From IMG/VR virus record IMGVR_UViG_3300029907_000366, positions 1 through 21,252 of that record: a DNA stretch of 21,252 nucleotides, one strand, 5' to 3'. The position numbers were made by a program, and so were the translations under genes. Position 1 is the first letter of the stretch. Each line of letters opens with the position of its first letter. The notes under the pieces are model-generated. The model saw only the letters and a list, made by a program, of their open reading frames with translations, was not told the origin of the DNA and did not search any database. Source of the stretch: a virus. Below are positions 8,853 through 15,507 of this stretch, piece by piece.

Positions 8853-9122
8853 ATGAATTCAAATATTCGTGTTTTCGATGTCCGACTCATGAAAATCTCG
8901 CGCGAACCTGCTCGCTTCTTGCCGCTTGAAATCGTAGTCATAGCTGATTCTTTTCCGCAGGCTGCTGAGGCGGCGGTGATTCGCGCAAACGATATTGTAA
9001 AAACTCGCGCCTTAAGCGGCGCGGCAGACAATACAGGCGTCGTTTTTGAAGGTTTCACTGTTGAGGATGTCTCCAGTATGACGGTGGTCCGCGAAAATGC
9101 AGCGCTCGCAAGGGGCGTCTGA
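8853..9122 (+). CDS. Small hypothetical protein between protease and capsid
   Basis: 89 residues from ATG 8853, with GAGGTG five bases upstream. The sequence mixes beta strands (IRVFDVRLMKI, LEIVVIADSF) and helix (PQAAEAAVIRANDIV), and ends NAALARGV. There is no signal peptide and no membrane segment. No family is recognised. The gene is more AT-rich than the protease and capsid genes that flank it, and its stop codon lies inside a heptamer repeat array, which suggests an insertion into the head module. The slot between protease and capsid sometimes holds a scaffold-like gene, but this capsid already has its own N-terminal delta domain. Confidence 0.6.
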   Translation: MNSNIRVFDVRLMKISREPARFLPLEIVVIADSFPQAAEAAVIRANDIVKTRALSGAADNTGVVFEGFTVEDVSSMTVVRENAALARGV

Positions 9123-9146
9123 CCATTGATCACTGACAACTGTTTT
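9119..9146. repeat. Heptamer repeat array 3
   Basis: Units CTGACCA, TTGATCA, CTGACAA, CTGTTTT in 7-bp phase. It contains the stop of the small gene upstream and opens the 151-bp gap before the capsid gene. I see no gene in the rest of the gap. Confidence 0.75.
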
Positions 9147-9273
9147 TCGTTTCCGTTGCGGCCCAGCGCCGCTGCCTTCAAGGGCAATCGGATGCGTACG
9201 TCTTCCTGGCAACGGCCGCGCCGCCAACAGGTCAACCGCAACTTTCAACCCAGTTTTTCCGGGAGGAAAAGCA

Positions 9274-10629
9274 ATGGCTATACAGGAACTCAAACTGAAG
9301 CGCGGCCAGCTCGGCACGGAAGCCAGCCGCCTGGCGGCGGAGTCAACCAAGCTTGCAACTAAGGTGGGCCGCTCCGTAGATGAAGTCGCAAAAGCGAAGG
9401 AGCTTCGCACGCAAGCCACTGTCATGCTCGACGAGGCTGACACCATCACCGAGCAGATCACCCTGCTCGAACGCAGCGCATCCCTCGAAGAGCGCAATGG
9501 TCGCATTAACCCGTCGCCCCGCCCCAACCCGGGCACTGAAGAGCCTGCGGCGCGCACCGATGCGGCGGCCTCCAGGCTGCTCACCAACGCGGTTGAGGTC
9601 TATCTCCGCTTCGGTGAGCAGGGCGTGGAAAAGATGTGCACGCAAGAAGAGCGGGCCGCTTTCAAGGGTGGCCGCCGCGATGCGCCTGTCCGCCACATCG
9701 TTATTGGCGGCGAGCGTCGCGACATCACGGAGGGTGGCACTGGCGCTTATATCGTGCCGCAGGAGTTCTATCCGGAACTCATCTCCGGTAAAAAGTTCGT
9801 TGGCAACCTGGTTGGCAGCGTCCGCAAAAAGGTCACCGCGGGCAATGGCGCGCCCATGAAGATCGGCCTGGAGAACGACACCGCGAATTCCATCGTCATC
9901 ATGACGGAGGATACGGATGTCACCGAGACCGATCCAACCCTTAGCGGTTTCACTGGGTCGACCGACACCGGGGCGACGCTCATCAAGGTTTCCAGGCAAG
10001 AGCTTGCGGATTCGGGCTTCAACCTTGTTTCGATCTTCCGCGATCGGCTCACCAAGCGCTATGCCCGTGGCCTTGAGAACTTCATCGCCAATGGTGACGG
10101 CGCAAATGTCCAGTCGTTGCTCAGCACTTCCGTTACCGGTGCGCCATTTGCAGGCAGTTCCGGCACCACCTTCGGTACGGACACCTTCAACATCACCGCA
10201 ACCAACGCGGGCCCCGGGTACGCGGACTTCAATGCCTGTGAAGGTCTCCTGGATCCGGTCTATGAGCCGAACGCCGCGTGGTTCATGCACAAGTCCACCC
10301 GCGTCTACGTGGCAGGGCTTCTCGATACCCTGAACCGTCCGCTCTTCCAGCCCAACCCGCAAAGCGGCATGCTTGACCAGATCCTGGGCTATCCCATCAA
10401 GCTCACCGCATACTATCCCATCGCCACCACGGCCGGAGCCAACGCAGTTACCTTCGGCGATCACGAGGAAGGCTACCTGCTCCGCACCGATGGCGACCTG
10501 GTTGTCCAACGGCTTGACGAGCGCTTCGCCACACAGTTGATGGTTGGGTTCCTGGCTTACACCCGTTTTGGCGGCTACATCACCAACCCGGGTACCAATC
10601 CCATCGTGGGCATGCAGACGCACTCCTAA
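9274..10629 (+). CDS. Major capsid protein (HK97 gp5 family)
   Basis: 451 residues from ATG 9274, with GGGAGG seven bases upstream. Residues about 1-75 are a helical, coiled-coil delta domain (LAAESTKLATKVGRSVDEVA) that acts as an internal scaffold and is normally removed by the prohead protease, probably in the Pro/Ala-rich stretch at about 80-105. The mature part shows the HK97 fold signature: GGTGAYIVPQEFYPELI, the A-domain and spine region, AWFMHKSTRVYVAGLLDTLN, ILGYPIKLTAYYPIA and the C-terminal GYLLRTDGDLVVQRLDERFA. Length is somewhat over HK97 gp5 (385). Whether it cross-links cannot be judged from sequence alone. Confidence 0.95.
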   Translation: MAIQELKLKRGQLGTEASRLAAESTKLATKVGRSVDEVAKAKELRTQATVMLDEADTITEQITLLERSASLEERNGRINPSPRPNPGTEEPAARTDAAASRLLTNAVEVYLRFGEQGVEKMCTQEERAAFKGGRRDAPVRHIVIGGERRDITEGGTGAYIVPQEFYPELISGKKFVGNLVGSVRKKVTAGNGAPMKIGLENDTANSIVIMTEDTDVTETDPTLSGFTGSTDTGATLIKVSRQELADSGFNLVSIFRDRLTKRYARGLENFIANGDGANVQSLLSTSVTGAPFAGSSGTTFGTDTFNITATNAGPGYADFNACEGLLDPVYEPNAAWFMHKSTRVYVAGLLDTLNRPLFQPNPQSGMLDQILGYPIKLTAYYPIATTAGANAVTFGDHEEGYLLRTDGDLVVQRLDERFATQLMVGFLAYTRFGGYITNPGTNPIVGMQTHS

Positions 10630-13278: not shown

Positions 13279-13803
13279 ATGACCATCACCGCCCAGACTC
13301 AGGAAGGCATGGGCTCGCTTATTGCCATCGGAACGCAGGGCGGCTCGCCCACCTACACGCAGATCGGCGGCAACACGGAGATTGAGCCGCCCCAGCCCAA
13401 GTGGGGTAAGGAAGATGTCACCACGCTGCCCATCGGCGCCAGCGGCACCACGCCGCCCACCCTCACCGGAGCCAGCTTCCTCCGCAAGTTCCTCAAGACG
13501 CTGCAGGATGGCGGCGAGCCCAAGCTTACCGGCTTCTGGCAATCGGGCGACCCCGGCCAGATCGCGCTCTATGCGGCTTACAATCAGCCCTCGAACTCCA
13601 CTTACGGATCCGTCTACCCTTTCAAGATCATCCTGCCGGTGAACCTGGCCGGTGGCCAGCTCACAACCGGGGACACTCTCACTTTCAGCGCCCATGTTAT
13701 GGAGTTCGCCATGGGCAAGGCTGAACCTGGCAAGCCCGTCCCCTATTCCGCCGCGCTACAGGTGGATGGCTCCGTCGCACCCACTTACACGGAAGGCAGC
13801 TAA
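13279..13803 (+). CDS. Major tail (tube) protein
   Basis: 174 residues from ATG 13279, with GGAGGA eight bases upstream inside a hairpin. The sequence is mostly beta with landmarks of the tail tube family: an early QEGMGSLIAIG, GNTEIEPPQPKWGKEDVTTL, a loop PPTLTGASFLRKFLKTLQDG, then PFKIILPVNLAGGQLTTGDT and LTFSAHVMEFAMG strands. Proteins of this type stack as hexameric rings around the tape measure. The length is in the normal range, with no extra Ig domain. Gene order (after tail terminator) supports the call. It closes the head-tail joining module before the accessory cassette. Confidence 0.8.
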   Translation: MTITAQTQEGMGSLIAIGTQGGSPTYTQIGGNTEIEPPQPKWGKEDVTTLPIGASGTTPPTLTGASFLRKFLKTLQDGGEPKLTGFWQSGDPGQIALYAAYNQPSNSTYGSVYPFKIILPVNLAGGQLTTGDTLTFSAHVMEFAMGKAEPGKPVPYSAALQVDGSVAPTYTEGS

Positions 13804-13844
13804 CGGAAAATAGCCGCGGTTTGCGGTAACGCTTCCAGGGCCGC

Positions 13845-13853
13845 TGTTATACT
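13845..13853 (+). promoter_or_regulatory. Extended -10 promoter of accessory gene 1
   Basis: TG-T-TATACT (13845-13853) is an extended -10 element 10 bases before GGAGG of the exported-protein gene, implying a very short leader. CCAGGGC (13835-13841) and GCCCTGG (13858-13864) form a 7-bp inverted repeat around it, which could be an operator. No good -35 is seen. Confidence 0.65.
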
Positions 13854-13871
13854 GGCTGCCCTGGAGGGGTC

Positions 13872-14297
13872 ATGGTAAAGCGTTCGTTGCTCTTCGCACT
13901 TCTCTTTTTTGCAGCGTGCGGCGTATTTGCGCAGTCCACCGCGCGTGTCGTTTTTTACCGGCCTAAATATGCGGCCGTCTCAACGCACCTTGACAGTGCC
14001 TCGGTGTGGATTGATGGCGTCAAGGCGGTCATTATCGATCCGCGGCGACGTGCGGTTGCGGAGCTGCCGGAAGGTAAGCATGAGTTTCGTTCTAATTCGA
14101 AGTCGGATTTGATCGTTATCAACCTCGAGGCTGGCAAAACATATTACCTGCGCCAGGGCTACGGCTACCCCAGCGCCTGGATAAGGAATATCGTCACGCA
14201 GGTCGACGCGGATACTGGGGAAGCTCAAAGTCGGGATATGAAGCTTGTCGATCGCGCCAGCGTACTCGATCATCATTTGATTACCGAGCCGCGTTGA
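13872..14297 (+). CDS. Exported DUF2846-like protein (accessory gene 1)
   Basis: 141 residues from ATG 13872, GGAGGGG just upstream. A signal peptide is clear: MVKRSLLFALLFFAACGVFA, then Gln21. The FAAC segment could also act as a weak lipobox with Cys16 lipidated. The mature part follows the DUF2846 pattern: ARVVFYRPKY, SASVWIDGVKAVI, VAELPEGKHEF and INLEAGKTYYLRQGYG, a small beta domain found in envelope lipoproteins. It therefore acts in the periplasm or at a membrane, not in the virion. It has its own promoter and lies between tail genes, as do morons that alter the lysogen's surface. A role in blocking other phages is inference, from its partner gene and from known prophage lipoproteins. 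Confidence 0.75.
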   Translation: MVKRSLLFALLFFAACGVFAQSTARVVFYRPKYAAVSTHLDSASVWIDGVKAVIIDPRRRAVAELPEGKHEFRSNSKSDLIVINLEAGKTYYLRQGYGYPSAWIRNIVTQVDADTGEAQSRDMKLVDRASVLDHHLITEPR

Positions 14298-14303
14298 AAG
14301 CCG

Positions 14304-14312
14304 TGCTATACT
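14304..14312 (+). promoter_or_regulatory. Extended -10 promoter of accessory gene 2
   Basis: TG-C-TATACT lies just after the stop of accessory gene 1. The stretch 14300-14325 matches 13840-13866 at 23 of 26 aligned bases with one gap, so the two genes carry copies of the same promoter and leader. GCCG/CGGC arms flank the -10 box. Confidence 0.65.
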
Positions 14313-14331
14313 GGCGGCCTTGGAGTGCATT

Positions 14332-14667
14332 ATGAGCAACGGTTTCAAAATCTTCCTCGTCGTTACCGGCGTTCTGGCTGTGGGCATCGTGGCCGTTGGC
14401 GTGATGGCATCGCAGGCTGGCATCCAGGCTGACATGATTCCAGGGCTGCTTCTGATTTTGGCGGCTGCGGTTATCTACTTCCTGCCGACCCTCGTTGCGG
14501 GTGTCCGCGGGTGCAAGGCTGGCGCTGGCATCGTGATCGTCAACATCTTTCTCGGCTGGACGTTCATTGGCTGGGTCGTCGCTTTGGCCTGGGCTGCTGC
14601 TGGTGAACGGAAACTGCTGCCAGTATCAACGGATCCCTTGTTGCCGCAAATGGCCGGCAAAGCCTGA
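14332..14667 (+). CDS. Superinfection-immunity (T4 Imm-like) membrane protein (accessory gene 2)
   Basis: 111 residues from ATG 14332, with GGAG six bases upstream. Three membrane segments are visible at about 6-26, 36-57 and 64-89. The core IYFLPTLVAGVRG followed by VIVNIFLGWTFIGWVVALAW is the signature of the superinfection immunity family (Pfam PF14373, T4 Imm), in which GWT-x-IGW-x-x-AL-x-W is highly conserved. T4 Imm sits in the inner membrane and stops DNA of incoming related phages from entering. The polar C-terminal tail (about 90-111) would face the cytoplasm or periplasm. The gene has its own promoter and is followed directly by an intrinsic terminator, so it is likely expressed in the lysogen independently of the late genes. 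Confidence 0.85.
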   Translation: MSNGFKIFLVVTGVLAVGIVAVGVMASQAGIQADMIPGLLLILAAAVIYFLPTLVAGVRGCKAGAGIVIVNIFLGWTFIGWVVALAWAAAGERKLLPVSTDPLLPQMAGKA

Positions 14668-14688
14668 CTCTTTAAGAATTGAACTGAA

Positions 14689-14716
14689 GGGTCGCCTCCG
14701 GGCGGCCCTTTTTATT
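14689..14716 (+). terminator. Strong intrinsic terminator closing the accessory cassette
   Basis: GGGTCGCC (14689-14696), loop TCCG, GGCGGCCC (14701-14708), then TTTTTATT. Eight paired bases (one G-T) and a T run. It ends only nine bases before the start of the tail chaperone gene, so late transcription must pass it, by antitermination or by partial read-through. Confidence 0.9.
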
Positions 14717-14725
14717 GGAGAAAAC

Positions 14726-15154
14726 ATGTCCGATTCCCCGAAGTTCCTCTTCGAATTCGACGAACCGAATGAGAAGGCCAGCATCACTGTTGAAGGCCGC
14801 ACTTACCGCATCTTTTACGATCTCGACGCCATCGAAATGTTCTATCTCATCTTCGGCGTCAACCCTGCCATTGAGGGCGTCGGCCTGCAGCCCATGCGGC
14901 TCGCGGTCCTGCTCTGGTGTGGCCTGCTGCGCTATGAGCCTAAGATCGAGTCGGATTTCGTCAAGTCCTGGTTTACGCCGCGCAGCATGCGGGACCTGGC
15001 CGTGGGCACGTTTAAAGCGTGGTCTCTCTTTGTGCCGACTCCTGTGAAAGAGGCACCAAAACCAAACCCTCGGAAAGCCCGACGGGCGCGGCGTGGTGGC
15101 GGCACTCCCGCAGCATCGCGCGCTACCACCTCGGGCTCTCCCTCGTTGAATTAG
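14726..15154 (+). CDS. Tail assembly chaperone, first frame (lambda gpG-like)
   Basis: 142 residues from ATG 14726, with GGAG seven bases upstream. The N-terminal half FLFEFDEPNEKASITVEGRT, YRIFYDLDAIEMFYLIFGVN and LLWCGLLRYEPKIESDFVKS is the compact helical/beta pattern of gpG-like chaperones, which coat the tape measure before tube assembly. After about residue 105 the protein becomes a low-complexity Lys/Arg/Gly/Ser tail (PKPNPRKARRARRGGGT), as expected where the zero frame only continues past the frameshift site. The next reading frame carries the T part, so both a short and a fused product are likely. Confidence 0.8.
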   Translation: MSDSPKFLFEFDEPNEKASITVEGRTYRIFYDLDAIEMFYLIFGVNPAIEGVGLQPMRLAVLLWCGLLRYEPKIESDFVKSWFTPRSMRDLAVGTFKAWSLFVPTPVKEAPKPNPRKARRARRGGGTPAASRATTSGSPSLN

Positions 15155-15507
15155 GCCGGCTGTCTCTCAAGGATTTTCACGCTCTTTACGAATGCCACGC
15201 AAACGCGCGAGAGGATGAGGCTCGTCTCTTCGGCCACGTTATCTGCGCCGTAGTCAATGGCAGCTTCTATCGGCCTAAAGATGACGTTACACTCTCCGAT
15301 CTTGGCTTTGATGCTCCGGAAACCTCGGCGCAGGCCTCGACGGAGGGGGCAGCCGCGCGGGCCGATTTGGTTCGCATGTGGGCCATGGAAATGGTCGCCA
15401 ATCATCCAGCCAACTTGAAGCGGGAGAAGCTGAATGTCGATGAGCCTCAAGATGGATGGGCTGGAGCAGCTCCAGGGCAAGCTGAAGCTGATGAGGGAAG
15501 CGGCTGA
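15019..15507 (+). CDS. Tail assembly chaperone, frameshift extension (lambda gpT-like)
   Basis: This frame is -1 relative to the gpG-like gene and overlaps it by 136 bases. The T-specific part WWRHSRSIARYHLGLSLVEL, then GRLSLKDFHALYE and a helical end, is the usual T-domain pattern that recruits tube protein. It most likely has no own start; GTG 15019 is only the first possible codon. Shift at the A4 run 15058-15061 (CCA-AAA to AAA-ACC) would give a fusion of about 260 residues. A perfect X-XXY-YYZ heptamer in zero-frame phase is not present. The C-terminal end overlaps the gp10-like gene by 74 bases. Confidence 0.75.
   Translation: MVSLCADSCERGTKTKPSESPTGAAWWRHSRSIARYHLGLSLVELGRLSLKDFHALYECHANAREDEARLFGHVICAVVNGSFYRPKDDVTLSDLGFDAPETSAQASTEGAAARADLVRMWAMEMVANHPANLKREKLNVDEPQDGWAGAAPGQAEADEGSG

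What the first reader, a model, noticed from the sequence alone, without database searches (positions are those of the whole stretch)
13804..14716. Twin-promoter immunity cassette inserted among tail genes
Seen: two small genes, each preceded by an extended -10 (TGNTATACT) in leaders that match at 23 of 26 aligned positions, followed by a strong intrinsic terminator that ends nine bases before the next late gene. Known: genes with own promoter and terminator inside late operons are morons; T4 Imm-family membrane proteins block DNA entry, and prophage lipoproteins (for example T5 Llp) block adsorption. Inference: an exported DUF2846-like protein and an Imm-like protein work as a two-layer superinfection-exclusion unit expressed in the lysogen. 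The duplicated leaders suggest co-regulation, perhaps by a factor that recognises the inverted repeat round the first -10 box.
Basis: partly seen in the sequence, partly recalled or inferred. Interest (0 to 1): 0.72.

Follow-up and report, generated by a model that had tools for sequence, protein, structure and literature searches.

The report
Swappable prophage accessory-gene slot among tail genes
Between two tail genes of a soil phage sit two small add-on genes, each with its own promoter and probably made while the phage is dormant; related phages carry quite different add-on genes at the same spot, often behind nearly the same start signal, so the spot looks like a plug-in socket for host-altering (here probably anti-phage) genes.

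Summary
Genes at 13872-14297 (PF11008 DUF2846, exported) and 14332-14667 (PF14373, Imm-type membrane protein) each follow TGNTATACT, the only two such sites in the window, and a strong terminator ends nine bases before the tail-chaperone gene. The moron reading is supported: in a related contig from an Acidobacteriaceae-family genome the same slot is empty, and in 13 related phages or prophages it holds other cargo (Imm alone, DUF2846 alone, exported proteins, small membrane proteins, a HIRAN-domain protein), usually behind a -10 box and before the same kind of terminator. One relative is an integrated prophage with an integrase.

Imm and DUF2846 occur singly at this slot, but adjacent (convergent) in a second phage lineage. 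The near-identical leaders are not private to this pair; close copies precede unrelated cargo in other phages. The inverted repeat is not shared by the two promoters. [quoted passage not shown] Similar hairpins of different sequence occur in four other cassette leaders. A lysogen-only exclusion role is plausible but untested. New variant of a known kind (morons).

The parts
13279..13803 (+). major tail protein, left border of the slot
   Evidence: phrog_158 major tail protein, E 7e-8; same neighbour in L020 and L095
13833..13870 (+). inverted repeat / RNA hairpin with the -10 in its loop and the Shine-Dalgarno GGAGG in its 3' arm
   Evidence: -27 kcal/mol, z about -4, 7 of 5000 shuffles; same architecture with other stem sequences in L269, L268, L274, L314
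13845..13853 (+). extended -10 (TGTTATACT) of the first cassette; predicted start about 13858-13863
   Evidence: no start site was measured
13872..14297 (+). DUF2846 protein, 141 aa, signal peptide (VFA|QS), predicted small beta-sandwich
   Evidence: PF11008 39.1 bits against cut-off 34.3; fold of the L095 homologue modelled at pLDDT 72
14304..14312 (+). extended -10 (TGCTATACT) of the second cassette
14332..14667 (+). Imm_superinfect-family membrane protein, 111 aa
   Evidence: PF14373 54.7 bits against cut-off 27.9; phrog_1039 'immunity to superinfection' E 2.4e-20
14686..14716 (+). intrinsic terminator closing the slot
   Evidence: -21.3 kcal/mol, z -3.5; equivalent terminators before the chaperone in 12 related loci
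14726..15154 (+). tail protein (probable tail assembly chaperone), right border of the slot
   Evidence: phrog_2115 tail protein, E 6.6e-5; 60% identical in L020; family alignment

Best explanation
The region is a moron (accessory-gene) slot between the major tail protein and the tail-chaperone gene of a siphophage of, most likely, Acidobacteriota. In this phage the slot holds two consecutive single-gene cassettes. Each starts with an extended -10 promoter and Shine-Dalgarno leader of a type shared across the slot in related phages, and one intrinsic terminator shields the late tail genes downstream. Shown by sequence and comparison: the slot, its variable cargo, the promoters and the terminator. 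Inferred: the genes are transcribed by host RNA polymerase from the silent prophage. The Imm-type inner-membrane protein then blocks DNA entry by related phages, and the exported DUF2846 protein is a second, independent periplasmic factor that may assist it. Also inferred: the leader hairpin keeps the first gene from being translated off read-through late mRNA and leaves its ribosome site freer on its own short transcript.
For: Empty slot in L314 (tail protein ends 9660, terminator, chaperone 9724). Other occupants in 13 related loci: Imm L020, L024, L266; DUF2846 L095; exported proteins L274, L269, L296, L308; 66-77 aa membrane proteins L268, L283, L289, L297; HIRAN proteins L266, L296; a 115-aa protein L262. 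TGNTANNNT precedes 11 of 23 Imm/DUF2846 genes but 0 of 130 other ORFs in the same contigs. Leader TATACTGGCNGCYYYGGAG: 9 stretches in 2.9 million viral contigs; the six that are real gene leaders all lie in this slot, and none occurs in about 790 Acidobacteriota genomes. Integrated relative in a 6.79 Mb chromosome (terminase 61% identical, integrase about 23 kb downstream) with a cassette in the slot. Integrases also in the L098, L012 and L017 contigs. Imm and DUF2846 assignments pass curated cut-offs. Inner-membrane exclusion proteins of long-tailed phages block DNA entry (PMC10883804), and T4 Imm appears to be a plasma-membrane protein (PMC6832632).
Against: No expression or infection data. 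No tyrosine integrase in the two overlapping records of this phage that with the window span about 38 kb, so its own lysogeny is not shown. PF14373 and PF11008 are also common in Acidobacteriaceae-family genomes (111 and 77 of 299), so family membership alone does not prove exclusion. DUF2846 has no known function, and the model of the window protein is poor (pLDDT 60). Predicted freeing of the ribosome site on the short transcript depends on the exact start (mean unpaired 0.21-0.59).
Confidence: 0.62

Rival explanations
1. The two genes form one functional pair: the exported DUF2846 protein and Imm act together as a two-layer exclusion system, co-regulated through their twin leaders.
For: The adjacency recurs in a second lineage with DUF2846 only 28-32% identical and in convergent order: L010/L011, L012/L013, L017, L098. 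Apart from one contig that is cut off (L105), only L095 of the DUF2846-bearing phages found lacks an adjacent Imm.
Against: Either gene occurs alone at the same slot (L020, L024, L266 against L095). Both are attracted to the same accessory sites, which explains co-location without interaction. The leaders are shared with unrelated cargo. No adjacent pair in 299 bacterial genomes.
Confidence: 0.25
2. The genes are late, lytic-phase functions (tail assembly, adsorption or lysis-time superinfection control, as T4 Imm acts during lytic growth), and the promoters boost their late expression.
For: They lie in the late tail operon, same strand. T4 Imm works during lytic infection (PMC6832632). No integrase was found for this phage.
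Against: Cargo is swapped or missing in relatives, including an empty slot. Host-type promoters and a terminator would be pointless inside a late operon. The hairpin predicts poor translation from read-through mRNA. An integrated relative exists.
Confidence: 0.15
3. The inverted repeat round the first -10 is a DNA operator for a repressor rather than an RNA structure.
For: Palindromes centred on -10 boxes are typical operators; the window has a small XRE-type regulator at about 2497-2763.
Against: Arm sequences differ between phages (CCAGGGC, CTCCGGAGCG, CCATGGCTC, CCCAGG) while the position of the -10 is kept. The second promoter and most other leaders lack a palindrome.
Confidence: 0.2

Closest known systems
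HK97 gp15 moron (superinfection exclusion)
   Same: Single accessory gene in the tail region of a temperate siphophage; predicted inner-membrane protein that blocks DNA injection (PMC10883804); expressed from the prophage (own knowledge of Cumby 2012, cited there)
   Different: gp15 is related to YebO (own knowledge), not to PF14373; a single gene; no shared slot-wide leader is known to me
T4 Imm / PF14373 superinfection immunity proteins
   Same: PF14373 domain and phrog_1039 match; small membrane protein
   Different: T4 is virulent and Imm acts in lytic infection; here the gene is a cassette in the late tail operon with its own extended -10 promoter
Tab of phage JBD26 (prophage moron with anti-phage action)
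   Same: Small moron with its own promoter inside the late region that protects the lysogen (PMC10884400)
   Different: Always between the terminase genes, on the other strand, unrelated sequence, acts on virion assembly
T4 gene e / I-TevI / Aeh1 mobE ribosome-site hairpins with internal promoter
   Same: Long upstream transcripts hide the Shine-Dalgarno in a hairpin, and a promoter inside or next to the hairpin makes a translatable short RNA (PMC3014915, PMC2988022)
   Different: There it delays late proteins during lytic growth; here the long RNA would be the lytic late mRNA and the short one the lysogenic mRNA; not tested
DUF2846 (PF11008)
   Same: Pfam match over the cut-off, signal peptide, beta-sandwich prediction
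   Different: No DUF2846 protein with a known phage function was found in the literature held; the Bd1399 crystal structure carrying that label was reassigned to DUF4360 (PMC10792529)

Membership tests
Phage moron | Inserted between two genes that are adjacent in related phages | tested here: met
   L314: tail protein 9010-9660 and chaperone 9724-10107 with only a terminator between; other cargo at the site in 13 loci
Phage moron | Own promoter | tested here: met
   Sequence and comparative evidence only: extended -10 in 11 of 23 homologues against 0 of 130 other ORFs; transcription not measured
Phage moron | Own terminator | tested here: met
   14686-14716, z -3.5; conserved in kind at the site
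Phage moron | Expressed from the repressed prophage and dispensable for growth | not testable with these tools
   needs RNA-seq and a deletion
Imm_superinfect (PF14373) | Match over the curated cut-off | tested here: met
   54.7 bits against 27.9, residues 48-88; phrog_1039 E 2.4e-20
Imm_superinfect (PF14373) | Blocks DNA entry of superinfecting phage | not testable with these tools
   no assay
DUF2846 (PF11008) | Match over the curated cut-off | tested here: met
   39.1 bits against 34.3
T5 Llp-type exclusion lipoprotein | Signal peptide with lipobox cysteine | tested here: not met
   FFAAC lacks the L/V/I at -3; homologues end in SPase I-like CDA|QQ, VYA|QE and the cysteine is not invariant in A2; read by eye, no signal-peptide predictor was at hand
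HK97 gp15 family | YebO-like sequence | tested here: not met
   Pfam scan to E 1 gives only PF14373 for the second protein
Ribosome-site hairpin with internal promoter (T4 e type) | Shine-Dalgarno paired in the long RNA | tested here: met
   GGAGG unpaired probability 0.00 in 131- and 261-nt read-through RNAs; a prediction
Ribosome-site hairpin with internal promoter (T4 e type) | Shine-Dalgarno free in the short RNA | tested here: inconclusive
   mean unpaired 0.59, 0.43 or 0.21 depending on start and length
Ribosome-site hairpin with internal promoter (T4 e type) | Structure kept while sequence changes in relatives | tested here: inconclusive
   5 of 19 cassette leaders have z below -3.2 against 4 of 165 controls below -3 (Fisher p 0.0007), but the imm leader and most others lack it

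The most novel reading that the evidence does not exclude
A group of Acidobacteriota siphophages carries a dedicated exchangeable cargo socket in the tail operon. A standard promoter and ribosome-site leader (TGnTATACTGGCnGCcTTGGAGG) and a standard terminator are reused with unrelated envelope-acting genes, and an RNA hairpin wrapped round the promoter confines the first cargo to lysogeny by blocking its translation from late read-through mRNA.
Probability: 0.25. Interest if true: 0.72.

Novelty: new variant of a known kind. Interest (0 to 1): 0.5.

Why it matters
It gives a sequence signature (slot, leader, terminator) for pulling candidate lysogenic-conversion and exclusion genes out of uncultured soil phages, where function cannot be read from homology. 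If the hairpin rule is true, it is a simple answer to how a gene inside a lytic operon is kept for the lysogen only, and it can be tested with reporter fusions.

Tried and rejected
tblastn of both proteins in 50,697 phage records: no match. DUF2846 scan of genome contigs: no confirmed relative. Solved-structure search with the DUF2846 profile: nothing above chance; fold search of the L095 model: only weak beta-sandwich matches, PDB best E 1.3e-3 and TM below 0.4 by query. The tool's own promoter scan found no -10/-35 pair and missed the terminator, probably because its stem was extended into the T tract. TGNTATACTGGC as a general host promoter: 1 hit in 13 genomes, before a tRNA-Lys gene, so it can be a host promoter but is not common. 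Hairpin as a general rule of the cassettes: rejected, 14 of 19 leaders lack it. Pair as a bacterial system: rejected, never adjacent in 299 genomes. The wider chaperone alignment was too diverse for a collection scan; a closer subset was used.

Full report
Observation. The window is a complete IMG/VR record of 21,252 bases, a siphophage head-tail gene cluster: terminase 4707, portal 6416, capsid 9274, tail terminator 12751, major tail protein 13279, tail protein 14726, tape measure 15928. Two more records carry the same phage with 100% identical DNA over the stretches compared and extend it by about 7.6 kb to the left and 9 kb to the right. The leader identity is 19 of 22, a little below the stated 23 of 26.

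What the genes are. The first is a DUF2846 protein (PF11008, 39.1 bits) with a signal peptide and a predicted small beta-sandwich. The second is a PF14373 membrane protein that also matches phrog_1039, 'immunity to superinfection'. Its conserved core FLGWTFIGWVVALAWA is shared with a large set of phage proteins.

The slot. Searching with the flanking genes rather than with the cargo gave the main result. In L020 (60% and 54% identical flanking proteins) the slot holds Imm alone; in L095 DUF2846 alone; in L024 Imm alone; in L266 Imm, a HIRAN-domain membrane protein and a third gene; in L274 an exported protein; in L269 a short exported protein plus another; in L268, L283, L289 and L297 small membrane proteins; in L262-L265 a 115-aa protein; in L296 a HIRAN protein and an exported protein. 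In some of these (L283, L289, L297) a structural gene has also moved in between the tail protein and the cassette, so the constant border is the chaperone gene. In L314, a contig of an Acidobacteriaceae-family genome with 65% identical terminase, the tail protein and the chaperone are separated only by a terminator: the empty site. In most of the occupied loci a GC-rich hairpin with a T tract sits just before the chaperone gene. This meets the defining comparative test of a moron.

Promoters. TGNTANNNT lies upstream of 11 of 23 Imm or DUF2846 genes checked, and of none of 130 other ORFs from the same contigs. The sequences are not fully independent, so the counts should not be read as a strict p-value. 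In several relatives the DUF2846 gene has its -10 only seven bases before ATG, which implies leaderless RNA. The longer leader TATACTGGCNGCYYYGGAG was found in nine stretches of 2.9 million viral contigs. Six are real gene leaders (this phage in three records, L266, and L280/L283), all just before the tail chaperone or the cassettes that precede it; the other three are chance hits. It was not found in about 790 Acidobacteriota genomes. The imm leader of the window resembles the imm leader of L266 (20/22) more than the DUF2846 leader beside it (19/22). The twin leaders are therefore a property of the slot, not of the pair.

The inverted repeat. It is absent from the second promoter (z about 0) but has counterparts of different sequence, again centred on the -10, in L269 (perfect 11-bp arms, z -5.0), L274 (z -4.1), L268 (z -3.4) and L314 (z -3.3). 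Among 165 control leaders four have z below -3, three of them plain terminators. In RNA that reads through from the tail operon the GGAGG of the first gene is fully paired; in RNA that starts at the local promoter the 5' arm is missing, though how free the site becomes depends on the exact start. T4 gene e, I-TevI and Aeh1 mobE use this layout. I propose that it stops translation of the DUF2846 gene from late mRNA; this is inference.

The pair. In a second phage lineage (L010-L013, L017, L098) Imm follows a minor tail protein on one strand and DUF2846 follows the tape measure gene on the other, ending tail to tail. Three of these contigs carry an integrase. So the two families do meet more than once, but each also occurs alone at the same slot, and in 299 Acidobacteriaceae-family genomes with 77 DUF2846 carriers and 111 Imm carriers they are never neighbours. 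Sharing a site is enough to explain the association; a functional partnership remains possible.

Lysogeny. The records of this phage have no tyrosine integrase. A relative (terminase 61% identical) is integrated in a 6.79 Mb chromosome (G277) with an integrase about 23 kb downstream of the terminase, and its slot holds an exported protein behind GCGTATACTG. This supports lysogenic expression for the group without proving it for this phage.

Verdict. The feature is real and best described as a moron slot with two cassettes; exclusion by Imm is the likeliest role of the second gene and the role of DUF2846 is open. The new elements are the slot-wide leader and the promoter-in-hairpin layout.

Noticed in passing
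L009:3671-4189, L014:3266-4216, L017:3848-4213: Imm-family proteins with long N-terminal exported extensions of unrelated sequence before the same membrane core, and two tandem imm genes in L014: the Imm core seems to be fused to varied periplasmic domains.
   Followed up: partly
L266:2110-2736 and L296:1009-1779: Membrane-anchored HIRAN-domain protein (PF08797 in L266) as a cassette in the slot, with a -10 only about seven bases before ATG (leaderless).
   Followed up: partly
L268:3142-3372, L283:5815-6048, L289:2223-2432, L297:2206-2439, L314:10478-10747: Family of 66-89 aa proteins with a C-terminal membrane segment (motif VFxGNLxxxxxxGxxYA) and no Pfam match where tested, carried behind the same type of leader.
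   Followed up: partly
L314:10440-11236: A second accessory site, between the chaperone and the gp10-like gene, with the same kind of -10 in an inverted repeat (CCCAGG...CCTGGG) and a terminator.
   Followed up: partly
window 14726-15507: The chaperone ORF is overlapped by a second ORF (15019-15507) in another frame and relatives show a similar layout, as expected for a programmed frameshift of the lambda G/GT kind.
   Followed up: no
L106:3315-9058 (left extension of this phage): ParB-like protein of 634 aa and a phrog_2045 protein of unknown function; no integrase.
   Followed up: no
299 Acidobacteriaceae-family genomes: PF14373 in 111 and PF11008 in 77 genomes, so both families are common bacterial genes here.
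   Followed up: partly
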